Below, piece by piece: positions 5,162 through 23,825 of a DNA stretch of 32,149 nucleotides. Every line of letters begins with the position of its first letter. Positions within the stretch are counted from its first letter, which is position 1. This stretch comes from Prevotella sp. (GTDB lineage: Bacteria > Bacteroidota > Bacteroidia > Bacteroidales > Bacteroidaceae), in NCBI GenBank assembly GCA_022771265.1, contig JALFCG010000084.1:1-32149 (forward strand), given 5' to 3'. The notes under the pieces were generated by a model that saw nothing but the letters and a program-made list of their open reading frames with translations, did no database searches and had not been told where the DNA came from. The position numbers and the translations under genes were made by a program.

Positions 5162-6091
5162 TCATTGACGATCAGGAGTATGAATGACATTTGACCGCCC
5201 ATTAGAACGATACTGCATAGGACTGCAACCAAGATGCTCCTTGGTGAACTTGCCGAAAAAGGAAGTGTTGGGAAAATCAAGGCGCATTGCTATTTCCTTG
5301 CATGAGAGAGAAGTGTTAAGCAACAGGTTGCGAATCTGTTCGGTGAGTTGCTCCTTTATCCATTTCGACACAGTTTTTCCCGTTTCTTTCTTCACAATAT
5401 GTGAGAGATACTTTGACGAGACACACAATTTGTCGGCATAGAAAGAAACGGAACGATGCTGGCATCGGTCTTCCGACAACAGGATGAGAAAGTCGTGGGC
5501 AATGTTCTTGTTGATGGGACTATTGGGTTGTACATAATCCGGCATGGTTTCCTTTCTTCTCTCGCACGCTGACATGAACTCAAACACAAGAGCTTGGGTT
5601 ATCGAGTCGGTAATGCGCCCACTGTATATAGTGTCGTGTTCGTCGTTTTTTATCTGCAACAGGCGTTTGTAACCCTCAACTAACTGCATCTCTTTTTCGT
5701 TCAACGAAATGAGCGGACGTTGATATGCGAAAAGGAAATTCGACATCGACTCTTTGTCGGGCACCACCAGCTCTTGGTATTTTCGCATGGATATACAAAA
5801 CAAGTCGCAATCGAAGTCGGTGGTTATCAAGGCTTCGGTCATGGTATGCATTCCGCTACAGAATATAATATCACCGGCTTGGGCTGTGTAGTTGACATTG
5901 TTAAGCGTGGCTTCTAATCTGCCATGCTTGCATAGTATGACAAGCGCAAAGTCAACTTGATTAATCTGCCTCCAGAAAGGCAGATTGTTCACGTCTTCAA
6001 TTATCGTGAGGTTTTCATCGGAGAATAATTCTTTTCCCAATCCACGTGTGAATCGTCTGCTGAAATCCGTTACACTCAGTCTCTTTTCCAT
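5162..6091 (-). CDS. AraC-family transcriptional regulator, divergent from RND operon
   Basis: A 309-residue cytoplasmic regulator. The N-terminal part (about 1-170) is a cupin-like effector domain; the C-terminal part (about 195-295) is a two-HTH AraC domain. The first HTH includes VSKYLSHIVKKETGKTVSKW and the second includes CKEIAMRLDFPNTSFFGKF, followed by GCSPMQYR. It lies head to head with the RND efflux operon and is the obvious candidate regulator. The spacer contains two 21-bp phased GAACA pairs, one in front of each promoter, which suggests both autoregulation and control of the pump. The inducer is unknown. The gene's last codons abut the broken AAA-ATPase-like remnant. Confidence 0.88.
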   Translation of the reverse strand: MEKRLSVTDFSRRFTRGLGKELFSDENLTIIEDVNNLPFWRQINQVDFALVILCKHGRLEATLNNVNYTAQAGDIIFCSGMHTMTEALITTDFDCDLFCISMRKYQELVVPDKESMSNFLFAYQRPLISLNEKEMQLVEGYKRLLQIKNDEHDTIYSGRITDSITQALVFEFMSACERRKETMPDYVQPNSPINKNIAHDFLILLSEDRCQHRSVSFYADKLCVSSKYLSHIVKKETGKTVSKWIKEQLTEQIRNLLLNTSLSCKEIAMRLDFPNTSFFGKFTKEHLGCSPMQYRSNGRSNVIHTPDRQ

Positions 6092-6257: not shown

Positions 6258-6265
6258 TATCTTTG
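6258..6265 (+). promoter_or_regulatory. -7 box of the RND efflux operon
   Basis: TATCTTTG matches TAnnTTTG and lies 30 bases before the ATG at 6296. There is no good -33 TTTG, consistent with a promoter that depends on an activator. Confidence 0.6.
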
Positions 6266-6295
6266 CCACCAAAAATATATGAAATAGATATTGGC

Positions 6296-7366
6296 ATGAA
6301 AAAGGAAAGAATTTGGATTGGTGTGCTTTGCCTGTCTCTCATGGCAATGACGGGATGTGGCGACAAGAAGACCGGAAAGGATGTATTGAAAAAAGTGAAT
6401 GTGGCAGAAGCCATCTCCATCGATGGTGGAGAGACGGTGTCGTTTCCAGCCACTACAAGGGCTGCCGAGGAGGTGAACGTATCGTTCAGGGTGAGCGGGC
6501 CGTTGGCCAAGGTGACGGTAAACGAAGGTGACTATGTAAGGAAAGGCCAAGTGTTGGCTATCATGGACCCGAGAGACTATCAACTTCAGTTGGCTGCCAC
6601 ACAAGCTGAATACGACCGCATAAAGGGCGATGCAGAAAGAGTAATCGCCATGTATAAGGAAGGTACGACCACTGCGCAAAACTACGACCAGGCGAGGTAT
6701 GGACTTCAGCAGATGACACAGAAACTTGCCAACCACCGCAACCAGCTCGCCGACACCCGATTGGTGTCACCCGTGGCAGGATATGTCAAGGAGAAACTGC
6801 ACGAGGCGGGAGAGACGGTAAGTGCAGGCATGCCTATCGTCACGGTATCTTCGGGTGACAGGATTGAGGTGGAAATCAATGTCTCGGCAAGCGACTATGC
6901 ACGATTAGGGCAATTGTCCGACTTCCGCTGCTCCATTGACGCTCTTGGTGGCAACAGTATGCCGTTGGAGCGCATCAGGACGAGTGCAGTGGCTAATGCC
7001 ACACAACTCTATACCGTCCGTTTTGCCATCCAGGGCAACTATAACCGCAAACTGCTTACGCCCGGAATGTCGGCTCTCGTGAAAGCCTTGTCGGCAAAGG
7101 GTTCCAGTACAGATGTCACCATACCCTCGTCGGCAATAATGAACAAGGACGGGCGCACTTCGGTATTCATCTTTTCAGAGCAATCCAAGAAGGTGACAAG
7201 AAAGGATGTCGAAGTGAAGGCAATGAAACTTGACGGAATGGCACAGGTGACCGGTCTGTCGGCAGGCGAGAAAGTGGTGACCACCGGTGTGCGATATCTC
7301 ACCGACGGACAACAAGTGGAACCCATGAAAGCAACATCAGCAACTAACATAGGAGGAATGTTATGA
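6296..7366 (+). CDS. RND efflux periplasmic adaptor (membrane fusion protein), lipoprotein
   Basis: A 356-residue HlyD/AcrA-family adaptor that bridges the inner-membrane RND pump and a TolC-type outer-membrane channel. The ATG at 6296 gives a lipoprotein signal (MKKERIWIGV...AMTGC, lipidated Cys21); the upstream in-frame TTG at 6263 lies inside the -7 box and cannot be the start. The first biotinyl-lipoyl half (about 60-95) includes VNEGDYVRKGQVLA. A short alpha-hairpin (about 95-150) is followed by the second lipoyl half (VSPVAGYVKEKLHEAGETV) and beta-barrel and membrane-proximal domains. Its stop overlaps the start of the pump gene by 4 bp (ATGA), so the two are translationally coupled. 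Substrate unknown. Confidence 0.92.
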   Translation: MKKERIWIGVLCLSLMAMTGCGDKKTGKDVLKKVNVAEAISIDGGETVSFPATTRAAEEVNVSFRVSGPLAKVTVNEGDYVRKGQVLAIMDPRDYQLQLAATQAEYDRIKGDAERVIAMYKEGTTTAQNYDQARYGLQQMTQKLANHRNQLADTRLVSPVAGYVKEKLHEAGETVSAGMPIVTVSSGDRIEVEINVSASDYARLGQLSDFRCSIDALGGNSMPLERIRTSAVANATQLYTVRFAIQGNYNRKLLTPGMSALVKALSAKGSSTDVTIPSSAIMNKDGRTSVFIFSEQSKKVTRKDVEVKAMKLDGMAQVTGLSAGEKVVTTGVRYLTDGQQVEPMKATSATNIGGML

Positions 7367-10300
7367 ACATCAGCAAATGGGCACTCAAAAGGGGCGTTCT
7401 TATCAATGCGTTTGTCGCCGTTCTCATCATCGGAGGCTTATGGGCTTTCACCCAAATGCCTAAACTCGAAGACCCTGCCATAAGGGTGAAGCAGGCATTG
7501 GTGGTTGCCACATATCCTGGCGCCTCGGCACATCAGGTGGAACTGGAACTCACCGACCCAATAGAGAAGTCAATACGCCAGATGCCTACCATCGACCATA
7601 TTGAGTCGTCGTCGTATGCCGACATGACCATCATCACCGTGGAACTGCAACCTACCGTGAAGGATGACGAACTCGAACAGCAGTGGGACTTGCTGCGCCG
7701 CAAGGTGGAAAACATAAAACCATCACTGCCAAAAGGGTCACAGGTGATGACCGTGGCGGACGATTTCGGCGATGTTTATGGCATGTTCTATGCCCTGACC
7801 GGCGACGGACTCTCCGACCGCCAGCTCAGCGACTATGCTGAACTCATAAAGCGAGAAGTGCTCGCCATCGACGGTGTGACACGTGTGGATATTTACGGCA
7901 AACGACCAGAATGTATCAATATCAACCTGAAAGAAGAGAAGATGGCAAATCTCGGGGTCTTGCCAACAGAAGTGATACAGACGCTCAACGGACAGAACGC
8001 CACCTCGTATGCTGGATATTATGACAACGGGACAAGGAGAATACGTGTCACCGTGGATGACAAGTTCCGCTCGGTGGAAGACATTGCCGACATGCTCATC
8101 GCCGGACACGACGACGACCAGTTGCGCATACGCGACATTGCCGATGTGAGCAAGGGTTATGAAAAGGTGACACGCAACGCCATGCTCCGCGACGGAGAGA
8201 GGGCGCTGGGCATCAGCATAGCCTGTTCGAGCAGTCACGACATACTGAAAGTGGGCGACAAAGTGGAAGAGAAACTCGGACAGCTGGCAAAGAGAATGCC
8301 TGTGGGTGTAGAATATAATAAGGTGTTCTTCCAACCCGAACGAGTGAGCGACTCGCTCTACACCTTCCTGATCAACCTGCTCGAATCGGTGGTTATTGTC
8401 GTGGTGGTGCTTATCTTCTTCATGGGATTCAAGTCGGGAGTGATACTCGGCATGTCATTGGCGGTAATCGTCTTCGGCTCGTTTCTCGTGCTCAACGGTT
8501 TCGACGGCACGTTGCAGCGTGTGTCGTTAGGTGCGTTCATCCTTGCCATGGGTATGCTGGTAGATAATGCCATCGTAATCGTAGATGGCATACTCGTTGA
8601 TCTCCGCAGTGGCAAGCCACGCGCCGAGGCGCTCACCTCCATAGGCAGGAAGACCGCCATGCCGCTGCTTGGGGCCACGCTCATCGCCATTCTTGCCTTC
8701 ATGCCCATCTTTCTCAGTCCCGACACTTCTGGAGTATATGTGCGCGACCTTTTCATCGTCATAGCCGTGTCGCTGTTGCTCAGTTGGCTGCTTGCCCTGA
8801 CCCACGTGCCACTGATGGCAAACCGCCTGCTCCATCCCAAGGTGAGCGAAGGCGAGACATACAAGGGCAAGGCATACGACATGCTCGACAAGGTGATGGG
8901 TGTTTGCCTGCGCCACCGCCTTATGGTGGTCGGCGCGGCAGTAGTGCTGCTTGTGGGCAGTCTGTCGTGCTATCCGTTAATCCAACAGAGTTTTTTCCCC
9001 GACATGGAATACGACCAACTCTACATCGAATACAAACTGCCCGAAGGCTATAACAGCACACAAGTGGAGCACGACCTGGAACATATGCGAACGATGTTGA
9101 TGCAATGCAAGGACGTAACGCACGTCACAACCAGTATCGGCGGCACTCCCTCACGTTATAATCTCGTGCGCTCCATAGCCACACCGTCGTTGGCATACGG
9201 CGAACTGATAGTCGATTTCACATCGCCGGAGACACTCGTGGCACATCTCGACTCTATGCAACGGACACTAAACGACCGATTCCCCGATGCGTATATCAAA
9301 ATCAAGCGTTACAACCTGATGTACAAAAAATATCCTATAGAGATATGTTTCAACGGTCCCGACCCGCAGGTGCTGCACCAGCTCACCGACTCCGCCATGG
9401 CTATAGTCAGAAACAGCGACAAGGTGTGCCTGCCCACGTCAGACTGGGAGCCACGGGTGCCTGTGCTCACCGTTGACTATAACCAGTCGGCGGCACGCAC
9501 CAGCGGATTGTCTCGCGGCGATGTTTCCCTCTCGCTCATGTCCTATACCGACGGTATTCCTGTAGGCACGTTCTACGATGGCATTCACCCCGAGAACATC
9601 TATGTGAAATGCCATACCGACAAAGGGGAAGAAGTGGAGAACCTCGACCGCGTGAATGTCTTCGGCATGATGCCCAACGTGGGCAATGTCTTCAACCGCA
9701 GCACTGTACAGAAACTCATGAGCGGACGTCTCGACAAGGATGACGTCATACGTCAGGTGACCAGTACCACACCCTTGTCGCAGGTGTCAAAGGGGATAGA
9801 CATCCGTTGGGAAGAACCCGTTGTGGTGCGCTACAATGGGCAGCGCCAGCAAAGGCTCCAGTGCTCGCCAGCCCCGGGTGTATCGACAGAGTCGGCACGC
9901 CAGTCGATAGCCAAAGCCATAGAGTCGATAGCCCTTCCAGAGGGATATTCACTCTCGTGGGAGGGTGAATATAAGGCAAGCGCCCAATCCAAACAATATC
10001 TCTTCAAGGGCTTCCCGCTGTCTGTGGTGATGATGCTGCTCATACTCATCATGCTGTTCAACGATTTCCGGCGTCCCGCCATCATCTTCGCTTGCATACC
10101 GTTAGTTGTGGTGGGTGTTTTCCCGTCGGTGCTCCTTTCGGGAAAGGATTTCGGATTTGTAGCCATCGTGGGCATACTCGGACTCATCGGCATGATGATC
10201 AAGAACGGTATCGTGCTCATCGATGAAATATCGCTACAGACATCACAAGGCAAACCGCTCGACAGGGCACTCATCGACAGTAGCAAGTCGCGCCTGCTTC

Positions 10301-10467
10301 CTGTGATGATGGCATCGCTCACCACCATCCTCGGTATGATACCTCTCATCTCCGACTCTCTCTTCGGGTCGCTTGCCGTCACCATCATGGGTGGATTGGC
10401 TGCAGGCACTGTCATCATTCTCATCTTCATACCAGTGCTATATTCGCTGATGTACAAAAGGAAATAA
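7363..10467 (+). CDS. RND-family efflux transporter permease (AcrB/MexB-like)
   Basis: A 1034-residue inner-membrane pump of normal RND length. It has an N-terminal membrane helix (about residues 10-30), a large periplasmic loop, and helices 2-6 containing the signature GMLVDNAIVIVDG (396-408) with the proton-relay Asp401. A second periplasmic loop is followed by the last helices with GIVLIDE near the C terminus. Family members use the proton motive force to expel drugs, bile salts or solvents through a TolC channel. Asp401 is followed by Asn rather than the second Asp seen in AcrB, which is common in Bacteroidota pumps. It lies between its adaptor (4-bp overlap) and TolC gene (3-bp gap). Control is probably by the divergent AraC regulator. 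Confidence 0.95.
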   Translation: MNISKWALKRGVLINAFVAVLIIGGLWAFTQMPKLEDPAIRVKQALVVATYPGASAHQVELELTDPIEKSIRQMPTIDHIESSSYADMTIITVELQPTVKDDELEQQWDLLRRKVENIKPSLPKGSQVMTVADDFGDVYGMFYALTGDGLSDRQLSDYAELIKREVLAIDGVTRVDIYGKRPECININLKEEKMANLGVLPTEVIQTLNGQNATSYAGYYDNGTRRIRVTVDDKFRSVEDIADMLIAGHDDDQLRIRDIADVSKGYEKVTRNAMLRDGERALGISIACSSSHDILKVGDKVEEKLGQLAKRMPVGVEYNKVFFQPERVSDSLYTFLINLLESVVIVVVVLIFFMGFKSGVILGMSLAVIVFGSFLVLNGFDGTLQRVSLGAFILAMGMLVDNAIVIVDGILVDLRSGKPRAEALTSIGRKTAMPLLGATLIAILAFMPIFLSPDTSGVYVRDLFIVIAVSLLLSWLLALTHVPLMANRLLHPKVSEGETYKGKAYDMLDKVMGVCLRHRLMVVGAAVVLLVGSLSCYPLIQQSFFPDMEYDQLYIEYKLPEGYNSTQVEHDLEHMRTMLMQCKDVTHVTTSIGGTPSRYNLVRSIATPSLAYGELIVDFTSPETLVAHLDSMQRTLNDRFPDAYIKIKRYNLMYKKYPIEICFNGPDPQVLHQLTDSAMAIVRNSDKVCLPTSDWEPRVPVLTVDYNQSAARTSGLSRGDVSLSLMSYTDGIPVGTFYDGIHPENIYVKCHTDKGEEVENLDRVNVFGMMPNVGNVFNRSTVQKLMSGRLDKDDVIRQVTSTTPLSQVSKGIDIRWEEPVVVRYNGQRQQRLQCSPAPGVSTESARQSIAKAIESIALPEGYSLSWEGEYKASAQSKQYLFKGFPLSVVMMLLILIMLFNDFRRPAIIFACIPLVVVGVFPSVLLSGKDFGFVAIVGILGLIGMMIKNGIVLIDEISLQTSQGKPLDRALIDSSKSRLLPVMMASLTTILGMIPLISDSLFGSLAVTIMGGLAAGTVIILIFIPVLYSLMYKRK

Positions 10468-10470
10468 AAC

Positions 10471-11916
10471 ATGAAAAGACTGATATACATAATGATTGGC
10501 ATAGGCATGCAACTCAATGCCACAGCCCAAGACTCACTGACCATCGACCAATGCAGGGCAATGGCAGTGGAGCATAACCGCCAACTGCAACAAGCCCGTG
10601 AGCAGAGGGAAAAATCGGGCTACGACGTGATGGCAATGAAAGCAAATTACCTGCCCAAGCTTGACTTTCAAGCCTTCAATCTCCTCAACACCACATCGGG
10701 CAGTATCGGGATGCCTTCCGCCCCTCTTCCCATTTATTCATACAACTCGCAGATGGGGCAGTTCCTGCCTTCTGTGCTTACCGATGCCTCCGGCAATGTG
10801 ACTGGGCTGTCGCAATATGCGGAATTTCCGGCAATGACCGTGAAGTATAAGATGCCCAACCTTTTCAATGCCTCGCTCTCGCTTGTGCAACCCATATATA
10901 TGGGCGGGAAGATTGACGCAGGATATACTATGACGAAAATAGGACAACGCATCTCCGACGAGAATATACGTATGACGGAGAGCGAGGTGATTGTCAGAGT
11001 AGAGGAGGCATACGCTCTTGCAGTGAAGGCAAGCGAGATGGTCGATGTGGCAAAGTCATACCGGCATCTTCTTCAGGAACTGCTGAAAACGGTGGAGTCG
11101 GCAGTGCGCCATGGAATGCGCACCAGAAACGACCTGATGAAGGTGCAGGTGAAACTCAACCAGGCCCAACTGTCTGTCACTCGTGCCGATAATGCCTACG
11201 ACCTTGCCCGCATGAATCTGTGTCAGGTCATTGGTATGCCCTTGTCGTCGCCTCTGCTCATTGCCCGTCCCGACATCACTTCAGCCTTGGTGGAGGAAGT
11301 CATGTCTGCCTCCGACGACAGTCTTCAGGTGCTCTCCCGACCAGAGTATGCCATCCTCAACGAGAAGGCAGAACTTGCCCGTCAGCAGCTGCGCCTCACC
11401 CGATCCGACTATCTCCCCCACCTGGCGGCATTTGCCTCGGGCGGATACACCAATGGCGGCAAGGTGACGATCGATGCCACCAGTTCGCTTGCCGGTACCC
11501 AGCGTATGTATGACCAAACACTCATCGACCAGTTCTCAGGTTGTGTCGGTGTCACGTTCTCCATGCCCATCTTCCATTTCGGCGAGCGCAGGGGCAAGAT
11601 ACGTTCTGCCAAGTCGTCTGTACGTATGGCGGAAATAGAACTGGCAGACAAACGTGAGAAAATGACACTCGAACTCGCCCAAGCCCGAAATACGCTTCGC
11701 GAACAACTCACTGCACTCGAAATAGCCCGACTTTCGGTGGAACAAGCCACCGAGAATCTCCGTCTCTCGCGCAGCTCTTACGATTCGGGCATGGAGACAC
11801 TCAGCGACCATTTAGAGGCGCAGTCGTTATGGCAGTCGGCACTTGCCGACGAAATAGATGCCCGCACTCAATTGATTGTCGCCCTTGGTAAATGGCGCAA
11901 GGCTGCAGGGAGATAA
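10471..11916 (+). CDS. TolC-family outer-membrane efflux protein
   Basis: A 481-residue outer-membrane channel that completes the tripartite pump. A signal peptide ends at NATAQ (about residue 20). Two outer membrane efflux protein repeats follow; each begins with a helix-rich segment (SLTIDQCRAMAVEHNRQLQ near the start; EYAILNEKAELARQQLRL in the second), and the second contains a typical CVGVTFSMPIFHFGERRGK strand. The gene starts three bases after the pump stop, so the operon is adaptor-pump-channel. There is no cysteine at the mature N terminus, so it is not lipidated. No convincing terminator follows directly. Confidence 0.92.
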   Translation: MKRLIYIMIGIGMQLNATAQDSLTIDQCRAMAVEHNRQLQQAREQREKSGYDVMAMKANYLPKLDFQAFNLLNTTSGSIGMPSAPLPIYSYNSQMGQFLPSVLTDASGNVTGLSQYAEFPAMTVKYKMPNLFNASLSLVQPIYMGGKIDAGYTMTKIGQRISDENIRMTESEVIVRVEEAYALAVKASEMVDVAKSYRHLLQELLKTVESAVRHGMRTRNDLMKVQVKLNQAQLSVTRADNAYDLARMNLCQVIGMPLSSPLLIARPDITSALVEEVMSASDDSLQVLSRPEYAILNEKAELARQQLRLTRSDYLPHLAAFASGGYTNGGKVTIDATSSLAGTQRMYDQTLIDQFSGCVGVTFSMPIFHFGERRGKIRSAKSSVRMAEIELADKREKMTLELAQARNTLREQLTALEIARLSVEQATENLRLSRSSYDSGMETLSDHLEAQSLWQSALADEIDARTQLIVALGKWRKAAGR

Positions 11917-12564: not shown

Positions 12565-13725
12565 TCAGTTTGCTTTCAAGTATAACCCGTTTATGTCCTT
12601 GAGAAAGAGGGTGCGCTTGTCGTTATAGAAACGAATGAAGTCGCTCACGGTCTTCTGTCCGGGATAAGGCATGTAGAAATGGCCGGGCTTGTCGTGGGCA
12701 TTGCGCCAGAGGAGGACGTAGGCGATGGGATACTTGTTGAGCACAGGCATGAGCACCTCTGTCCACCAGTTCTCCATTCCAAGACTCTCCATACCTGTCT
12801 CACTCAACACTGGCACGACATTGTGCTGCTTGGCAATCTCGCAGATTGTCTTAAGACCAAGGTCGAGACCGTTGCGGTAGTTGTTGATGGCTGTGGTGTC
12901 CTCGGGATTGTTGGTGCAATATGTGTCGAAGCCTATCACATCCACCATCTCGTCGCCAGGCCAGCGCTCAAGATATTTGTCGGCATCACCGCCGAACTCT
13001 GTTCCAGGAGAATAGGCATAGAGCACATTGGCGACTCCTTTCTCTTTCAGTCGGTCTTCAGTGAGTTTCCACAGAGCCTTATACTGCTCGGTGGTACAGA
13101 GATTCTGTCCCCACCAGAACCAGCTACCAGTGTGCTCATGCCATGGACGGAAGAGTACGGGAACCTTCACTCCATAAGGAGTCTCAAGCGAGTTAAGGAA
13201 CTCGGCGAGAGTATCGAGCCATCCGAGAAACTTCTCGTGGCACTCGCCACCTTCAAGCACAGAGGCTACGGTCTGTTTCTCCTGGTCGGTGAGCGAGTCG
13301 GGCTTCACCCAAGCCGAACCACCGGTGAGAGGATTGTCGAGATGCCAGCTTAGCGTTACCATTCCTCCGCGGTCGTATTGGCGTATTATCTCCTCACGCA
13401 TTCTGTCGAATGGCACTCCGTCGAGGTTTACGGAGTCGCCCATTTCGAGATGTCCAAGGTCGAAGCCGACTATAGCGGGGAAGTCGTCGCAAACGCTCTT
13501 AACGTCAGAGCGGCAACTGTCGCCCACCCACCCTATTCCATATACGGTAGCATCCTGATGACCGACGAGATAGCCCTTTTCCGCCGAAGCCTTAAGGTTT
13601 GCGAGCAGGTTTTCGGTGCGTTGTGTACGTCCCGATTCAGCCAACGGGTCGTCAGCCTTTTTCTTGTCGCATGAAGCAGTCAGCATTACAGTTGCGACCA
13701 TAAAAAGAATAATGTTTTTTTTCAT
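12565..13725 (-). CDS. GH26 endo-beta-mannanase, lipoprotein
   Basis: A 386-residue glycoside hydrolase family 26 enzyme that cleaves beta-1,4-mannosidic bonds in mannan or gluco/galactomannan, probably yielding mannobiose as in the Bacteroides fragilis pathway. The lipoprotein signal ends at Cys19 (VMLTASC), so it is anchored to a membrane and is likely surface exposed. Family motifs are GHQDA (56-60), FRPWHEHTGSWFWWG (193-207) with acid/base Glu198, and VLSETG (307-312) with nucleophile Glu310. The gene starts one base after the stop of a second, truncated GH26 gene, in the same orientation, and ends at a hairpin terminator. Transcription probably comes from the old SusC promoter at 14941. 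Confidence 0.92.
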   Translation of the reverse strand: MKKNIILFMVATVMLTASCDKKKADDPLAESGRTQRTENLLANLKASAEKGYLVGHQDATVYGIGWVGDSCRSDVKSVCDDFPAIVGFDLGHLEMGDSVNLDGVPFDRMREEIIRQYDRGGMVTLSWHLDNPLTGGSAWVKPDSLTDQEKQTVASVLEGGECHEKFLGWLDTLAEFLNSLETPYGVKVPVLFRPWHEHTGSWFWWGQNLCTTEQYKALWKLTEDRLKEKGVANVLYAYSPGTEFGGDADKYLERWPGDEMVDVIGFDTYCTNNPEDTTAINNYRNGLDLGLKTICEIAKQHNVVPVLSETGMESLGMENWWTEVLMPVLNKYPIAYVLLWRNAHDKPGHFYMPYPGQKTVSDFIRFYNDKRTLFLKDINGLYLKAN

Positions 13726-13726
13726 A

Positions 13727-13966
13727 TTAGAACTTCACTTTGTCGCGTGTTATAACGAATTGGCTGCCCATTGCTGCCTTCCACCAAGCCTCGTCGGCAT
13801 GTTTGTTTACAGCTTCGCTTCCGTCATACCAAGGCATGAACCACGACCACTTGGCACCTGACTCCCACTGCTCGGAGATGTTTGCAACGCGCGAATTGGT
13901 GTATTCGCTCCATCCGCACTCAGAGAGGGTGACAATCTTGTTGCTGTACTTGTTGGAAAGCAGTCT
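13727..13966 (-). pseudogene. Second GH26 mannanase, C-terminal remnant
   Basis: In this frame the minus strand reads LLSNKYSNKIVTLSECGWSE, then an AKWSWFMPWYD segment and HADEAWWKAAMGSQFVITRD before the stop at 13727. This is the C-terminal end of a GH26 enzyme, with the nucleophile Glu preserved in LSECG but the acid/base half missing. There is no start codon of its own; its left border is fused to SusC sequence around 13956-13967. It differs from the intact GH26 next door, so the ancestral locus had two mannanases in tandem. Not functional. Confidence 0.75.
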
Positions 13967-14117
13967 GGAAGATGGCATCCTGCCAGTTTGTTCCTTTTCC
14001 AAGCAGTGAGACATCGCTGTAGTATGGGTCTTCTTTGATGCCGCCGAAGCCTGAAGCCACGAAGTCGTTGTAGTAGTCGCCAAACTCGCGGAGGTTCATC
14101 ATGTCGAGGCGTTGGGT
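13962..14117 (-). pseudogene. SusC-type receptor, internal remnant
   Basis: The minus strand reads RLDMMNLREFGDYYNDF, then LLGKGTNWQDAIFQTAF. This is a recognisable stretch from the start of the barrel of SusC/RagA TonB-dependent receptors. It is out of frame with the upstream SusC piece (junction around 14109-14119), and its downstream end is fused to a GH26 fragment (around 13956-13967). Confidence 0.75.
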
Positions 14118-14830
14118 CTGTCAGCCGGGTTGATGGTTGACAAAGGAGAAACGGTTGATGTCGGACCGTTGTCGAGGGCATCGCCGAATCCAAGGCTTGA
14201 ACCGCTTGTGTTTCCCGTCTGTACTATCACACCGTCGATAACGTAGAGTGGCTCGGCGTTGGAGTTGATGGTTGCAGTACCACGCACACGAATTAAAGAA
14301 GCTGTACCCGGAGCACCGGAAGTGCTAACTGCCGTGACACCGGCTGCACGACCCTGAAGCGACTGGTCGAGTGAGGTGATGATAGAGCCTTTCATGGCTT
14401 TCTCCCCAAGGTTGACCGACGAGCCAGAGATGTCGCTCTTCTTCATCGTACCGTAACCAACGACAACCACTTCGTCAAGAAGTTTCTTGTCTTCTTCAAG
14501 GGTGATGGAAAGAGTTGTCTGGTTGCCGACTTCTATTTCCTTAGTTACGTAACCGATATATGACACTACGAGAGTGGCTCCCGGCTGTACGTTAAGTGTA
14601 AAGTTTCCGTCAAAATCGGTGGCAACGCCCGTTGAGGTTCCCTTGACCTTGACACTCGCACCAATGATTGGTCCCATGGCATCGGAGACGACACCTGAGA
14701 CTTTCTTCGTTTGCTGTACGGCTGGAGGCGTTTGTGCATCCCGTACCGCAAAAGCCTGCGAAGGATTGCCCAACAATAGTATCGAGCATAACCCTACAAG
14801 CAAGATTTGTTTTCTTGTTTTACTGTTCAT
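14118..14830 (-). pseudogene. SusC/RagA TonB-linked receptor, N-terminal remnant
   Basis: About 237 residues of the beginning of a SusC-type outer-membrane glycan importer. It has a signal peptide (MNSKTRKQ...AFA), a carboxypeptidase-regulatory-like domain (about 44-118, KVSGVVSDAMGPIIGASVKV), the linker LDEVVVVGYG and the plug with GRAAGVTAVSTSGAPG and PLYVIDGV. It breaks after STINPAD (about 14120) and stops at once in RPNAST. An intact protein would be about 1000 residues and be followed by SusD; both are gone. The start ATG at 14830 and the promoter upstream are preserved, so the locus is probably still transcribed. Confidence 0.85.
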
Positions 14831-14933: not shown

Positions 14934-14941
14934 CAAAGGTA
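14934..14941 (-). promoter_or_regulatory. -7 box of the SusC-remnant/GH26 transcript
   Basis: On the minus strand the sequence is TACCTTTG, a TAnnTTTG match about 104 bases before the SusC ATG. A weak TTG (minus strand 14961-14959) lies 17 bases upstream. Confidence 0.55.
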
Positions 14942-14962
14942 GCAATTATTTCATAAAGCAAT

Positions 14963-15001
14963 TGTGCTTATTTTGATAAAAGATGATACTATTTTGCAAA
15001 T
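14963..15001 (-). promoter_or_regulatory. Paired 18-bp activator sites, minus orientation
   Basis: Reading the minus strand, ATTTGCAAAATAGTATCA (15001-14984) is the distal site and TTTATCAAAATAAGCACA (14980-14963) a weaker proximal one, 21 bp apart. The gaps from site end to the -7 box are 42 and 21 bases. The distal site matches the plus-side site at 15209-15226 at 15 of 18 positions. Confidence 0.6.
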
Positions 15002-15187
15002 ATTACGAAAAACAACAAGAAAGTGATTGTTTTACTATTTTTAAGTGTATTATTTACAATATTATTGATATAACGCAAGAATTTCTTAAAACACTCTCAA
15101 AAAAACGACTGCCTTTATATATATAATATAAGGTGTAGGCTTGCATAATAGTATAAAAAACATTAATTAATAGTCATATTTTTACTT

Positions 15188-15226
15188 TTTGGCAACATAG
15201 TGTAATTTTTTGGCAAAAAAGTATCA
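15188..15226 (+). promoter_or_regulatory. Paired 18-bp activator sites, plus orientation
   Basis: TTTGGCAACATAGTGTAA (15188-15205) and TTTGGCAAAAAAGTATCA (15209-15226) are direct repeats 21 bp apart that match at 14 of 18 positions. The gaps to the -7 box are 42 and 21 bases, the same as on the other side of the spacer. The likely binder is the AraC-family regulator encoded at the end of this operon. Confidence 0.65.
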
Positions 15227-15255
15227 TTGTTTTCATAGAAAATGTACTAACTTTG
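15227..15255 (+). promoter_or_regulatory. Promoter of the mannan utilisation operon
   Basis: TTG at 15227-15229 (-33) directly abuts the proximal activator site, and TAACTTTG at 15248-15255 is a clean -7 box, 18 bases apart. The ATG of the first gene is at 15421, so the leader is about 160 bases. Confidence 0.65.
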
Positions 15256-15420: not shown

Positions 15421-16695
15421 ATGAAAAGAACTTGCATGTTTTTGCTCACGCTACTTCTCGTGGTTGTAGCGCAAGCACAAATCAGGGGTAATAACATCAA
15501 CGTCACTGTGACACCTGACCATTACGACTGGAATTACAAAACAGGAGAGACTGCCAAATTCAACGTCAGCGTACTGCGATCGGGCACGCCGATTGCCAAC
15601 GCCAAGGTGGCTTACGAGGCGGGGCCGGAGATGTACCCGACGGTAAAGAAAGAACTGACACTGAAAGGCGGGACAGCAACGTTTGAAGGAAAGATGAACA
15701 AACCGGGATTCTACCGCGTGACAGTGACATACACGGAGAAAGGCAAGACCTACACCGGCATCTGCACCGCCGCCTTCTCGCCAGAGAAACTGACAGCGGA
15801 TGTCGTATGCCCCGAAGACTTCGACTCATTTTGGAGCAACACCATTGCCGAAGCACGAAAGGTTGACCTCGACCCGCACAGGGAGCTGTTGCCCGAGCGA
15901 TGCACAAAGGACGTGAACGTCTATGAGGTCAGCTTCAACAATAATGCCTGGGGAAGCCGCATCTACGGCATATTGTGCGTACCGGTGAAGCCAGGAAAGT
16001 ATCCTGCACTTCTTCGTGTGCCAGGAGCGGGATGCCGACCATACGGTGGTGATGTATATGTAGCGTCGCAGGGAGCCATAACGCTGGAGATTGGTATCCA
16101 TGGCATTCCTGTGACCATGAAACAGGAGGTTTATGACCGTCTTCACAACGGTGCATTAAATGGATATTGGGAAGCCAACCTCGACGACCGTGAAAAAATG
16201 CCTTATAAGAGAATTTTCACAGGGGCAATCCGTTCTATCGACTATATTGCCTCTCTGCCTGAGTGGGACGGAGAGAAACTGGGAGTGACGGGCAGTAGCC
16301 AGGGCGGTATGCTGTCGCTCGTTTGCGCTGCACTTGACAAACGAGTGACATGCTTCGGAGCTGTGCATGCAGCGATGTGCGACCATACTGCCTCACTGAA
16401 GAAGCAGGCTTGCGGATGGCCTCACTATTTCTATAATGTGGAGAATCCTAATCCCGTGAAGGTTAAGAACTCAGGCTATTTCGACGGAATAAACTTCGCA
16501 AAGCGCATAACATGCCCTGGATGGTTCTCATTCGGATATAACGATGTGGTTGTTCCGCCTACGACAATGTGGGAAACCTACAACACCGTGACTGCTCCCA
16601 AGGAGCTGAGCCTTTACCAACAGACAGGGCACTTCTGGTATCAGGAACAATGGGACGAGTGGGTGGCTTGGCTACTAAAGGAATTAAAAAAATGA
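15421..16695 (+). CDS. CE7-like acetyl (xylan) esterase, secreted
   Basis: A 424-residue exported esterase of the AXE1/carbohydrate esterase family 7 type, which removes acetyl groups from polysaccharides or oligosaccharides. The signal peptide ends at VAQAQ (residue 20). An Ig-like N-terminal domain (about 25-120) precedes the alpha/beta-hydrolase (about 125-424). Likely catalytic residues are Ser293 in GSSQGG, Asp375 in GYNDVV and His404 in TGHFW. As the first gene of the mannan operon it is best explained as a deacetylase for acetylated glucomannan or its products, although the family is named for xylan. The gap to the GH130 gene is 54 bases. Exact substrate is inferred from context. Confidence 0.85.
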   Translation: MKRTCMFLLTLLLVVVAQAQIRGNNINVTVTPDHYDWNYKTGETAKFNVSVLRSGTPIANAKVAYEAGPEMYPTVKKELTLKGGTATFEGKMNKPGFYRVTVTYTEKGKTYTGICTAAFSPEKLTADVVCPEDFDSFWSNTIAEARKVDLDPHRELLPERCTKDVNVYEVSFNNNAWGSRIYGILCVPVKPGKYPALLRVPGAGCRPYGGDVYVASQGAITLEIGIHGIPVTMKQEVYDRLHNGALNGYWEANLDDREKMPYKRIFTGAIRSIDYIASLPEWDGEKLGVTGSSQGGMLSLVCAALDKRVTCFGAVHAAMCDHTASLKKQACGWPHYFYNVENPNPVKVKNSGYFDGINFAKRITCPGWFSFGYNDVVVPPTTMWETYNTVTAPKELSLYQQTGHFWYQEQWDEWVAWLLKELKK

Positions 16696-20555: not shown

Positions 20556-21452
20556 ATGAAACAAGACCATACCACCGACCGCGTGCTTCACGAAATAACC
20601 CCATTGCGTGAAAACGACATAATGTACATTGCCGACCGCCACAAGAAGGAATTCACCTATCCGATTCATAACCACCAGGTGTTTGAGCTCAACTTCGTCG
20701 AACATGCGGCAGGAGTGAGGCGCATTGTCGGCGACAGCAACGAGGTCATAGGGGAATACGACCTCGTGCTCATCACCAGTCTTGAACTCGAACATGTGTG
20801 GATGCAGAACGACTGCAAAAGCGACGACATACACGAGATAACCGTGCAATTCCGATTCGACCTGTCGGAGGAAAGCTTATTAGGCAAGTCGGCATTCAAG
20901 CAAATCTACAACATGCTCAACGAGGCGCGCAAGGGGCTCGTCTTCTCCATGGATGCCATAATGAAGGTCTATAACCAGCTTCATGACCTCAGCAGCATCA
21001 CCGACCGCTTCGATGCGTTCATCAGTTTCCTCCGCATTCTCAACACGCTTGCCAACAGCGATGGTTCGCGCACTCTTGCAACGACGAGCTACGCGAAAGT
21101 GGTGATAGAGGAGGATAGCTCACGCATACTCAAGGTGAAAAACTACATCAACACCCACTACATGGACGACATGAAGCTGAAGACTCTCTCAGAGCTTGCC
21201 TGCATGAGCGAGACCGCTTTCAGCCGCTTCTTCCGACTCCACACAGGGCGCACCGTGAGTGACTACATCATCGACATCCGTCTCGGCTTTGCCGCGCGCA
21301 TGCTTGTCGATACCACCAAGAGCATCGCCGACATCTGCTACCTATGCGGCTACAACAACCTTAGCAACTTCAACCGCGTATTCAAGCGGAAGAAGGGCTG
21401 CTCGCCCACTGAGTTTCGCGAGTATTACCGCAAGAAAAAAATTATCCTGTAA
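20556..21452 (+). CDS. AraC-family regulator of the mannan operon
   Basis: A 298-residue regulator with an N-terminal cupin-like domain (about 15-150, including YPIHNHQVFELNFV, typical of AraC-type ligand binding) and a C-terminal double HTH (about 195-298). The first HTH includes LKTLSELACMSETAFSRFF and the second includes SIADICYLCGYNNLSNFNRVF, then KGCSPTEFREYY. It is the last gene of the operon, 48 bases after the epimerase, so it is probably autoregulated. It is the natural candidate for binding the four 18-bp sites between 14963 and 15226, whose 21-bp phasing is typical of AraC dimers. The inducer is likely a manno-oligosaccharide (inferred). Confidence 0.88.
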   Translation: MKQDHTTDRVLHEITPLRENDIMYIADRHKKEFTYPIHNHQVFELNFVEHAAGVRRIVGDSNEVIGEYDLVLITSLELEHVWMQNDCKSDDIHEITVQFRFDLSEESLLGKSAFKQIYNMLNEARKGLVFSMDAIMKVYNQLHDLSSITDRFDAFISFLRILNTLANSDGSRTLATTSYAKVVIEEDSSRILKVKNYINTHYMDDMKLKTLSELACMSETAFSRFFRLHTGRTVSDYIIDIRLGFAARMLVDTTKSIADICYLCGYNNLSNFNRVFKRKKGCSPTEFREYYRKKKIIL

Positions 21453-21596: not shown

Positions 21597-23825
21597 TTAC
21601 GCCCTCAGCGAAACACGGAACCTCGAGCCTTTTGAAGCGTAAGTGCGGTCCAGCTCTACCGTTGCACCCATACGCCTTGCTATCTTGCGCACAAGCGGGA
21701 GGCCGAGACCTACGCCGGGCACAAACTCATCCTCCTTAAAAAAGCGGTCGAAGATGCTCTCCTCGTTGCCTTCGCGAATGCCCTTGCCCGTGTCCGCCAC
21801 AGTAAACACGGTTTCGCCGTCGGCGCCAGTGTGGCACTCCACGCTGATGAAACCCTCCGCGGTGAACTTCACCGCGTTGCCCACCAGGCACTGCAAGATG
21901 CGCGATAGACCCTTGCCGTTGGTTTGCAACGTGTCCGTTTCTCTTCGGTTGCTGAACGTCAGCTCCACGCCCTCAGCCGGTCGCGGCACTATGGAATCCA
22001 CCTCGCTGTACAAGGCGGCTATGGAGACCATCTCGCATGGCAGCGGCTCGTCGCTGCTCTCGTATTCTGAAATTTCGAGGAACTTGTTGATCAGTCGAGT
22101 CATGTAGGTTGTCTGGTCGGCGATGATGTCGTTGTACTGCCGTTTCTGGTCGTCGGAGAGTTGAATGTTCGGGTCGGTGAGCAACTGCACGAAACCGTAG
22201 ATTTGGTTCAACGGCGTACGTATCTCGTGCGACATGCTGTTGATGAACGAGTCTCTCATCTGCTTTGCCTCTTCCATGCCCGTCTTTTCCTGCTCGTTGA
22301 TTTGCCTCGACCACTTGCGGTATTCCTCCGCATGGATACCGAAATGAGCGTAGAACTTCTTGGCTAAGTCGGCTGCGTCCGTAAAGCCCGATGCCGTGGC
22401 AATGTCGTCCATCGGCATGTCGTTCTTCAGCATTTCGAGGCACTGCATGAGGCGCATCTCGTCGGGGTTGGCGTTCTTTGCGTCATCATTTAGGCGTAGC
22501 CGTGTCAGCTCACCCTCCTTCTCCATCATTTGGTTAATTGTCGAGACGATGGTCTTGTTGCGGCGGTTAACCTTGCGGTTAAACATCAGCAGCATGACAA
22601 TGAACATAAAGGCGAGCGCCAACACCACCGCCACGACAAAGAAGATGCCCTTGTGCCTCGACAGCTGCGCGTCCTTCTCCGCAAGGAGGCGTTCCTTCTC
22701 CTGCGTCTCGTAGATTTTCGCCAGTCGCGCTCCGTCCTCCTCACTGTTGCGCTTGGCTATCGAGTCCTTCACGCTGCTTATCACCTCCGCCTTCTCGAAA
22801 GCCTCGCGGTAGTTGCCGCGAGTCTTGCTTATATATTTCTCGTAGTCGAGCACATATTCCACGAAAAACTCCGATAGGGTGTCGTTGTTTGCCACCGCGT
22901 TTTCCCTTATACTGGCGGTTATCTCCGCAAGGCGTTTCACATCGTTCACGTCCAAGTAATGCTCCGAGACGAGAGCCTCAACGAAGTTTGTCCCCGCGAG
23001 TTTCGACTTCTTTATCAACGTAAGATATTTCTCCGATTCCCTCGCGTTGCCCGTCTTATCATAGAATTTCATCAGCAGGCCGTAGGTGTGGAGCTGGCGG
23101 TATTCCACCACCCCGTCCATTACGTTATCAAGCTGTTCCATTTTTTTTGTGATGTTGGTCAAGTCGGGAATTAGCTGTTTCGCTTCTTCGTATCTTTTGG
23201 CGTTGAGCAGGCTTTCCATGTAGTTTCCCACAAAGGAGTAGGCGTTGTTGATATTCTGGAAGTCGTTATTCTTGTCCAACGATTTTACTATTTCATCCTT
23301 TCCCTCAGCGAAGAGCTTGAATCCGCTTTCCTGGTCGCCAAGCTTTATAAGGCTTAGTGCCAATGCTTCTGTAGCCGACACCTCATATTCTTTAATATTG
23401 TTCTTTTGCGCCACTTCCATAGCCGCCTTGGAATATTTTATGCTTTGTGCGTATTGGCTGTTTTGATTGGCAATGTCGGCAAGGATGTTCAAGATGGTGA
23501 AATGGCATTTCACGTCTTTCTGCAGCTCAAGGGAGTCTTTCAGCACTTGTTTTGCATAATATTCTGCCATCTTGTTATCAGCGTACCCGTTGACGTAGAT
23601 GGCAAAACGCATGTAGTTGAGCTCATACGGCAGCGCCTCCTTGTTCATCTCCATCGTGTCGATGATGGCAAGGGCACGGTCGGGCTCCTGGAGGCTTATC
23701 TTTGTGATAAACTCCTTTGTGTGGGTGCTGTCCGCACCACCTTTACCGCCCGCAGTGCGGCTATCTGAACAACCGGCGAAAGTCAGCAGCACAAAAATTG
23801 CCGATATGGTCAATAGCTTATTCAT
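21597..23825 (-). CDS. TPR sensor histidine kinase with internal AraC-type half-HTH
   Basis: A 742-residue membrane sensor kinase. The N terminus has a lipoprotein-like signal (LLTFAGC, Cys19). Residues about 35-360 are a TPR-like helical sensor region, expected in the periplasm, followed by a short coiled coil and one membrane helix (about 393-415). After the membrane, residues about 456-504 (LEMLKNDMPMDDIATASGF, then FYAHFGIHAEEYRKW) match the second half of an AraC HTH. The kinase core follows: H-box SHEIRTPLN with His533, N-box LVGNAVKFT (Asn650), G1 DTGKGI (678-683), F-box FDRFFKED and G2 GVGLGLPL. There is no receiver domain and no response regulator nearby. Its ATG overlaps the stop of the OYE-like gene (ATGA), so the two are coupled. 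Confidence 0.88.
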   Translation of the reverse strand: MNKLLTISAIFVLLTFAGCSDSRTAGGKGGADSTHTKEFITKISLQEPDRALAIIDTMEMNKEALPYELNYMRFAIYVNGYADNKMAEYYAKQVLKDSLELQKDVKCHFTILNILADIANQNSQYAQSIKYSKAAMEVAQKNNIKEYEVSATEALALSLIKLGDQESGFKLFAEGKDEIVKSLDKNNDFQNINNAYSFVGNYMESLLNAKRYEEAKQLIPDLTNITKKMEQLDNVMDGVVEYRQLHTYGLLMKFYDKTGNARESEKYLTLIKKSKLAGTNFVEALVSEHYLDVNDVKRLAEITASIRENAVANNDTLSEFFVEYVLDYEKYISKTRGNYREAFEKAEVISSVKDSIAKRNSEEDGARLAKIYETQEKERLLAEKDAQLSRHKGIFFVVAVVLALAFMFIVMLLMFNRKVNRRNKTIVSTINQMMEKEGELTRLRLNDDAKNANPDEMRLMQCLEMLKNDMPMDDIATASGFTDAADLAKKFYAHFGIHAEEYRKWSRQINEQEKTGMEEAKQMRDSFINSMSHEIRTPLNQIYGFVQLLTDPNIQLSDDQKRQYNDIIADQTTYMTRLINKFLEISEYESSDEPLPCEMVSIAALYSEVDSIVPRPAEGVELTFSNRRETDTLQTNGKGLSRILQCLVGNAVKFTAEGFISVECHTGADGETVFTVADTGKGIREGNEESIFDRFFKEDEFVPGVGLGLPLVRKIARRMGATVELDRTYASKGSRFRVSLRA

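What the first reader, a model, noticed from the sequence alone, without database searches (positions are those of the whole stretch)
14934..15255. Mirrored, 21-bp phased 18-bp sites at both divergent mannan promoters
Seen: plus sites at 15188-15205 and 15209-15226 (14/18 alike) and minus sites at 14984-15001 and 14963-14980. The best cross-spacer pair agrees at 15 of 18 positions. On both sides the sites are 21 bp apart and end exactly 42 and 21 bases before a TAnnTTTG -7 box. Known: AraC activators bind two direct half-sites 21 bp apart next to the promoter. Inferred: the AraC regulator at 20556-21452 co-activates both arms of the locus. This operator appears readable at base level.
Basis: partly seen in the sequence, partly recalled or inferred. 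Interest (0 to 1): 0.8.

Follow-up and report, generated by a model that had tools for sequence, protein, structure and literature searches.

The report
Mirrored AraC-type operators for mannan genes
Between two divergent sets of predicted mannan-digesting genes, this Prevotella genome carries two mirrored pairs of short sites whose spacing to the promoter box is kept in many relatives, and an AraC-type protein encoded beside them likely binds the sites to switch both sets on: a neat but familiar kind of switch.

Summary
In detail: all coordinates, the 21-bp phasing and both TAnnTTTG boxes check out. With a matrix of 40 sites from other genomes, three of the four half-sites are the three best positions of the window; the minus-proximal one is weak (rank 93 of 64264).

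The phase is conserved. In 80 mannan loci outside the first matrix's training set, a good site lies exactly 21 bases before TAnnTTTG 42 times and 42 bases before it 18 times, against 3 hits at the 34 other gaps of 5-39 and none at gap 21 on reversed sequence.

The AraC reading is well supported, not proven. AraC ortholog and mannan phosphorylase co-occur (199 genomes: both 90, neither 87). No HTCS-sized gene was found in the mannan stretches held. Of 30 relatives' promoters with the site, 20 come from genomes whose AraC gene lies at dapA, unlinked; one AraC clade sits inside the mannan operon. HTCS proteins use the same 21-bp repeats, so geometry alone cannot name the binder. A new member of a known kind; nothing was tested at the bench.

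The parts
15188..15205 (+). plus-arm distal half-site TTTGGCAACATAGTGTAA
   Evidence: rank 3 of 64264 window positions with a matrix of sites from other genomes
15209..15226 (+). plus-arm proximal half-site TTTGGCAAAAAAGTATCA; equals the consensus of 40 sites from other genomes
   Evidence: rank 1 of 64264; with N21 and TAnnTTTG the only 0-mismatch place in the own genome
15248..15255 (+). plus-arm -7 box TAACTTTG, 21 bases after the proximal half-site
   Evidence: phase conserved
14984..15001 (-). minus-arm distal half-site ATTTGCAAAATAGTATCA (the strong one on this arm)
   Evidence: rank 2 of 64264
14963..14980 (-). minus-arm proximal half-site TTTATCAAAATAAGCACA (weak)
   Evidence: rank 93 of 64264; phase exact
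14934..14941 (-). minus-arm -7 box TACCTTTG
15421..16695 (+). AXE1-type carbohydrate esterase, first gene of the plus arm
   Evidence: PF05448
16750..17916 (+). GH130 mannoside phosphorylase
   Evidence: PF04041
17943..19286 (+). GPH/MFS sugar-cation symporter
   Evidence: PF13347; TIGR00792
19287..20507 (+). cellobiose/mannobiose 2-epimerase-like
   Evidence: PF07221; NF041848 below its cut-off
20556..21452 (+). AraC-family regulator, likely binder of the sites
   Evidence: PF12833 and PF00165; predicted strand-rich N-terminal part plus two-HTH C-terminal domain
14099..14830 (-). susC N-terminal stub (243 aa), first gene of the minus arm
   Evidence: TIGR04056 partial match; frame breaks
12565..13725 (-). 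GH26 mannanase-type protein, minus arm
   Evidence: PF02156

Best explanation
The spacer holds two mirrored units, each of two 18-bp direct half-sites 21 bp apart ending 21 bases before a TAnnTTTG box, and the AraC-family protein encoded at 20556-21452 likely binds each unit as a dimer and so would activate both arms of this predicted beta-mannan locus. Shown: the sites, their exact phase, its conservation in many Prevotella promoters and one Hallella promoter, and co-occurrence of the AraC gene with the mannan phosphorylase. Inferred: (1) each AraC monomer covers one half-site with its two helix-turn-helix motifs; (2) the proximal half-site covers the place of a -33 element, of which no conserved trace is seen, so the bound dimer helps RNA polymerase there; (3) the signal is a cytoplasmic mannan-derived sugar sensed by the N-terminal part; (4) because the gene lies last in its likely target operon in this lineage, it feeds back positively.
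For: Phase: in 80 loci outside the training set (1.13 Mb, both strands) 42 sites at gap 21, 18 at gap 42, 1 each at gaps 18, 22 and 38, none at the other 31 gaps of 5-39, 1 at gap 63; 0 at gap 21 on reversed sequence; a half-site exactly 21 bp upstream scores +2.5 on average against -19.4 over offsets 14-69, 15 of 42 at 6 or more. Esterase promoters: 30 of 56 at gap 21, 0 in 20 shuffle rounds; of the 30, 20 are in genomes with a dapA-linked AraC, 5 with the AraC elsewhere, 5 had no AraC locus fetched. Co-occurrence AraC (E 1e-40)/GH130 (E 1e-120): both 90, AraC only 8, GH130 only 14, neither 87 of 199. Three AraC-negative genomes with the site (G033, G094, G120) gave no dapA hit either, so the stretch is probably missing from their assemblies. 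No DNA-binding-domain hit in an HTCS-sized frame in the 80 GH130 loci or the window. AraC genes elsewhere lie within 0.9 kb of such a site in 8 of 29 loci, before GH26, GH36, GH130, GH5 or esterase genes. Segments around both helix-turn-helix motifs are strongly conserved in seven members of 45-80% identity.
Against: No binding, footprint or expression data. 26 of 56 esterase promoters have no site of 11 bits at gap 21, 21 of them in AraC-positive genomes. HTCS proteins of Bacteroides use 21-bp direct repeats, and the B. ovatus beta-mannan locus has an HTCS. Loss of the site with loss of AraC rests on four genomes (0 of 4 against 27 of 48); only two of the four (G037, G044) have a -7 box at the usual place, and G044 keeps a weak site of 8.1. 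The minus-proximal half-site is weak. Co-occurrence is not corrected for shared ancestry. Loci were read only as far as fetched (about 16 kb or less). The window itself has a histidine kinase with an HTH_18-like stretch (21597-23825, below Pfam's cut-off) and a second AraC gene (5162-6091).
Confidence: 0.8

Rival explanations
1. A hybrid two-component system encoded elsewhere in the genome binds the half-sites, as is likely in Bacteroides mannan loci; the nearby AraC gene controls something else.
For: HTCS motifs are direct repeats with a mean distance of 21 bp, HTCS_Man being two 16-bp sites with a 5-bp spacer (PMC3878776). The B. ovatus beta-mannan locus has an HTCS (PMC5217682). The own genome and relatives encode HTCS-sized proteins with this DNA-binding domain. 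One such frame (947 aa) lies in L112, an AraC locus of G189, over 20 kb from its GH130 gene.
Against: None in the 80 GH130 loci or the window, as far as fetched. AraC genes lie beside such a site in 8 of 29 loci and co-occur with GH130.
Confidence: 0.13
2. The AraC protein controls only the plus arm; the minus-arm sites are relics, since susC is broken here.
For: susC is a stub in the window; the minus-proximal half-site is weak; of 13 divergent susC promoters in the test set 6 have a site of 11 bits at gap 42 and only 1 at gap 21, with 1 each at gaps 22, 43, 58 and 63.
Against: The minus-distal half-site is rank 2 in the window; 10 of 18 susC promoters examined, training loci included, have a two-site score of 10 or more.
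Confidence: 0.15
3. The sites are a chance product of an A+T-rich spacer.
For: Half-sites and spacer are A+T-rich; with 3 mismatches allowed the pattern is no commoner in the own genome than its reversed control.
Against: 0 hits at gap 21 in 20 shuffle rounds; 0 on reversed sequence against 42; the phase is kept in many genomes.
Confidence: 0.01

Closest known systems
E. coli AraC at araI1-araI2 (operator layout recalled; no call read a paper on it)
   Same: One-component AraC-family activator; two direct half-sites 21 bp apart beside the promoter; its DNA-binding domain (2k9s) matches by sequence and fold.
   Different: Here two mirrored units serve two divergent promoters with Bacteroidota TAnnTTTG boxes; the half-site sequence differs; no looping site was looked for.
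HTCS operators of Bacteroides thetaiotaomicron (Ravcheev et al. 2013, PMC3878776, passages read)
   Different: The candidate regulator here is a 298-aa protein in which Pfam finds no kinase, receiver or periplasmic sensor.
Bacteroides ovatus beta-mannan locus BACOVA_02087-97 (PMC5217682, passages read)
   Same: Isomerase, symporter, mannosylglucose phosphorylase and GH26 genes in one locus.
   Different: There an HTCS that binds manno-oligosaccharides is the predicted regulator; here a one-component AraC protein likely takes that place.

Membership tests
AraC/XylS one-component activators | C-terminal DNA-binding domain with two helix-turn-helix motifs | tested here: met
   PF12833 81.5 bits over a cut-off of 33.6; DNA-binding domains of AraC, AdpA and MarA matched by sequence and fold
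AraC/XylS one-component activators | N-terminal effector/dimerisation domain in the same protein | tested here: met
   model with mean pLDDT 81.7: strands at 23-99, helices at 112-166; the RhaR regulatory domain matches with TMt 0.57-0.62. Pfam names no N-terminal domain; ligand unknown
AraC/XylS one-component activators | Direct half-sites about 21 bp apart next to the core promoter | tested here: met
   the sequence pattern only; spacing rule recalled
AraC/XylS one-component activators | The protein binds the sites and activates transcription | not testable with these tools
   needs gel shift, footprint and reporter tests
Hybrid two-component systems (HTCS) | Sensor, histidine kinase, receiver and AraC-type domain in one chain | tested here: not met
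   the 298-aa protein has only the AraC-type domain in Pfam. The kinase at 21597-23825 has a sub-threshold HTH_18-like stretch but no receiver hit
Hybrid two-component systems (HTCS) | HTCS gene in or beside the controlled locus | tested here: not met
   no hit in a frame over 450 aa in the 80 GH130 loci or the window with a home-made DNA-binding-domain profile, as far as the loci reach
Bacteroidota housekeeping promoter | TAnnTTTG at -7 | tested here: met
   both arms; consensus as given in PMC7366714; start sites not mapped
Bacteroidota housekeeping promoter | TTTG at about -33 | tested here: not met
   no conserved TTTG where the proximal half-site ends, over 49 plus-arm promoters; a conserved TT lies at positions 6-7 of the 21-base gap instead

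The most novel reading that the evidence does not exclude
Prevotellaceae replaced the membrane-bound HTCS of Bacteroides mannan loci with a cytoplasmic one-component AraC regulator; its gene, ancestrally beside dapA, was captured once by its own target operon; and the two arms are tuned oppositely, with the strong half-site proximal at the esterase operon and distal at susC, which would set different activation thresholds for import and for breakdown.
Probability: 0.45. Interest if true: 0.6.

Novelty: new member of a known kind. Interest (0 to 1): 0.45.

Why it matters
It gives a base-level operator, a named candidate regulator and a target present in about half of the Prevotella genomes sampled (GH130 in 105 of 200, AraC in 99 of 200). 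In the paper searches made here no listed title or abstract start names an AraC-type mannan regulator in Prevotella; most listed papers were not read. It also suggests that the same catabolic gene set can be run by a membrane HTCS in Bacteroides and by a soluble AraC protein in Prevotella, and it gives a spacing rule (site, 21 bases, TAnnTTTG) for finding other AraC-type regulons in Bacteroidota.

Tried and rejected
HTCS inside the locus: looked for with a home-made DNA-binding-domain profile and not found in the 80 GH130 loci or the window; one 947-aa frame in L112, an AraC locus. AraC-negative genomes that carry the site looked like counter-examples until three of them gave no dapA hit either, probably an assembly gap. 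A regulon beyond the locus: in the own genome a further site (17.0) precedes a GH36 alpha-galactosidase (L245), but of 15 GH36 homologs in loci already held (one promoter twice, L123/L153) only L124, L213 and L123/L153 have a site of 7 or more at gap 21, so this is a lead only. A further site on contig C163 (L249, 17.4) has no same-strand gene downstream in the ORF list kept and may be chance. The other AraC gene of the window (5162-6091) lies beside an efflux operon and was not pursued.

Counts to read with care: the 49 of 75 plus-arm promoters include loci the matrix was trained on, and one promoter (L121/L176) twice. The matrix was trained on 28 half-sites that I chose from the output, the window's four included; it also picked the 40 sites. 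In one search the dapA-linked control had 0 of 50 at gap 21 but 8 at gap 30, 3 at gap 31 and 1 each at 29, 43 and 48, which I did not follow up. Confidence in the best explanation was lowered from 0.82 to 0.80, and the HTCS rival raised from 0.12 to 0.13, after rechecking how far the loci reach.

Full report
WHAT WAS CHECKED. Half-sites start 21 bp apart on each arm, and 21 bases lie between the proximal half-site and the -7 box. The plus arm encodes an AXE1-type esterase, GH130 phosphorylase, symporter, 2-epimerase and the AraC protein; the minus arm a susC stub and a GH26 protein. Of 12 named loci encoding an AraC relative, nine are Prevotella (79-87% identity), one is Hallella multisaccharivorax (58%) and two are distant Bacillota (26-27%); several of the Prevotella contigs have the same lengths as contigs of the same-genus handles, so the window's genus is taken as Prevotella.

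IS IT MORE THAN CHANCE. A matrix from 28 half-sites of mannan operons that carry the AraC gene (the window's four included) was applied to 80 other mannan loci fetched around GH130. Of these, 56 have the esterase gene with at least 250 bases upstream; 30 of 56 have a site of at least 11 bits exactly 21 bases before TAnnTTTG, none at any other gap from 0 to 44 except 5 at gap 42, the place of the distal half-site; 20 rounds of dinucleotide shuffling gave none at gap 21. Over the full 1.13 Mb, both strands: 42 hits at gap 21, 18 at gap 42, 3 in total at the other gaps of 5-39, 1 at gap 63; reversed sequence gave 0 at gap 21. A second matrix from the 40 distinct sites so found, none from the window but picked with the first matrix, has the consensus TTTGGCAAAAAAGTATCA, identical to the window's plus-proximal site, and ranks three window half-sites 1, 2 and 3 of 64264; the minus-proximal one is 93rd. 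In the own genome, half-site + N21 + TAnnTTTG matches once without mismatch (here); up to 3 mismatches give 22 places against 24 for the reversed pattern, so loose matching says nothing.

ARM ASYMMETRY. Over 49 plus-arm promoters (of 75 examined, 54 with a TAnnTTTG) the proximal half-site carries 17.4 bits and the distal one 8.9, mostly in its AAAGTAT part; over 10 susC-arm promoters (of 18 examined) the distal carries 19.7 and the proximal 14.1 (training loci included, one promoter twice). In the 13 divergent susC promoters of the test set 6 have a site at gap 42 and 1 at gap 21, with 1 each at gaps 22, 43, 58 and 63. No -33 TTTG is conserved where the proximal half-site ends; the published consensus has TTTG at about -33 (PMC7366714, passages). 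This fits an activator standing in for the -33 element; that step is inferred.

WHO BINDS. The geometry does not decide. HTCS motifs in Bacteroides are direct repeats with a mean distance of 21 bp (PMC3878776, passages), and the B. ovatus beta-mannan locus has an HTCS (PMC5217682, passages). Four lines favour the AraC protein. First, co-occurrence: of 199 other genus genomes 90 have both AraC and GH130, 8 AraC only, 14 GH130 only, 87 neither (not corrected for ancestry). Second, the exceptions: in the 14 GH130-only genomes P0001 finds only distant relatives (E 1e-14 or weaker, mostly in HTCS-sized frames). Of the eight among them with a testable esterase promoter, three carry the site (G033, G094, G120), and all three give no dapA hit, beside which the gene often lies, so their assemblies probably miss that stretch. 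In four others the stretch after dapA was read and holds no AraC (G037, G044, G097, G101): 0 of 4 have a site of 11 or more (G044 has 8.1; G097 and G101 show no -7 box at the usual place), against 27 of 48 AraC-positive loci. The eighth, G177, has neither dapA hit nor site. That contrast is weak by number. Third, position: the DNA-binding-domain profile found no frame over 450 aa in the 80 GH130 loci or the window; other hits there were AraC-sized (L153 and L202, this AraC; L160, about 6 kb upstream of the esterase; the window's 5162-6091); among 176 loci scanned one HTCS-sized hit, in L112, lies over 20 kb from its GH130 gene. AraC relatives outside dapA and the mannan operon have a phased site within 0.9 kb downstream in 8 of 29 loci (threshold 5 bits, gap 21; 2 at gap 22, 2 at gap 42, 1 each at five others); dapA-linked ones have 0 of 50 at gap 21 but 8 at gap 30. 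The gene after such sites is GH26 (L111, L119), GH36 (L123), GH130 (L113), a SASA esterase (L127, L128) or GH5 (L110); in L125 the first gene has no Pfam match and the second is an AXE1 esterase. Fourth, the segments around both helix-turn-helix motifs are strongly conserved in seven members (45-80% identity to the window's protein), and a Hallella operon has the same genes plus a GH26 gene, the AraC gene and a site of 15.9 bits at gap 21.

THE REGULATOR. A model from 21 sequences (mean pLDDT 81.7, pTM 0.67) shows a strand-rich N-terminal part, a helical stretch and a two-motif DNA-binding domain. The best fold matches are full-length AraC-family proteins, then DNA-binding domains such as those of AdpA and AraC, and the RhaR regulatory domain; full-length matches have TM-scores of about 0.35-0.43, so the domain arrangement is not settled. 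Nothing in the calls names the ligand.

HOW THE GENE MOVED. Of 96 AraC loci examined, 50 have dapA just upstream, 17 (the window included) lie in a mannan operon, 2 lie before a GH130 gene, 27 elsewhere. Of the 30 test promoters with the site, 20 are in genomes whose AraC is dapA-linked, 5 in genomes with the AraC elsewhere, and for 5 no AraC locus was fetched. In a tree of 96 rows (one distant locus, L133, left out; Hallella added) 17 of 18 mannan-operon sequences form one clade (SH-aLRT 99) among the dapA-linked ones; L118 falls elsewhere (quick method, no bootstrap). One capture by the operon is the simplest reading; Hallella has a long branch, so its place is unsure. AraC relatives at E 1e-50 occur in 31 of 295 genomes of the order.

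WHAT IT IS. A new member of a known kind: AraC-type direct-repeat operators at two divergent promoters. What is new is the assignment, the exact and conserved phase to the Bacteroidota -7 box, and the likely exchange of regulator type between Bacteroides and Prevotella. Paper searches for AraC with mannan, Prevotella or Bacteroidetes, and for AraC with TAnnTTTG, listed no title or abstract start that describes such a regulator; the library holds open-licence papers only. Of the listed papers I saw passages of six (PMC3878776, PMC11253607, PMC10766802, PMC5217682, PMC7366714, PMC12125979) and no whole text.

WEAK POINTS. No experiment. 21 of 48 AraC-positive esterase promoters have no site of 11 bits at gap 21, in part because some have no TAnnTTTG just upstream and may be transcribed from further up. 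Many genomes are incomplete assemblies. The susC of the window is broken, so the minus arm may do little in this very genome. A histidine kinase with a sub-threshold HTH_18-like stretch lies next to the AraC gene (21597-23825) and was not studied.

Noticed in passing
window 13727-14830 (-); L274:463-2216: susC is a 243-aa stub: after about residue 238 the frame changes, about 60 more SusC residues follow in another frame, then a piece of a GH26 gene and the intact GH26. L274, another Prevotella genome, also has a susC stub directly before GH26, with a different junction. Real deletion or assembly collapse was not settled.
   Followed up: partly
window 21597-23825 (-): A 742-aa histidine kinase carries an HTH_18-like stretch (residues 456-504, below Pfam's cut-off) directly before the HisKA domain, an unusual order.
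   Followed up: no
L245:1476-1543 (own genome contig C44, near 27431): A proximal site of 17.0 bits with TACCTTTG at gap 21 lies upstream of a GH36 alpha-galactosidase on another contig: a possible further target. Few homologs share it.
   Followed up: partly
L174, L182, L185 (plus arm); L167, L177, L181 (susC arm): In some proximal half-sites the AAAGT part looks shifted by about 2 bp relative to the GCAA part while the distal half-site stays near-canonical (by eye).
   Followed up: no
L161, L198, L207: The two mirrored units lie back to back: the starts of the two distal half-sites are only 20-21 bp apart, against 187 in the window.
   Followed up: no
plus- and minus-arm promoters of relatives: A conserved TT(T) lies at positions 6-8 of the 21-base gap between the proximal half-site and the -7 box.
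   Followed up: no
dapA-linked AraC loci (50 of 96): Downstream of the AraC gene 8 of 50 have a weak site 30 bases before TAnnTTTG, not at gap 21; perhaps one shared ancestral sequence.
   Followed up: no
window 5162-6091 (-) and 6263-11916 (+): A second AraC-family gene lies divergent to an RND efflux operon.
   Followed up: no
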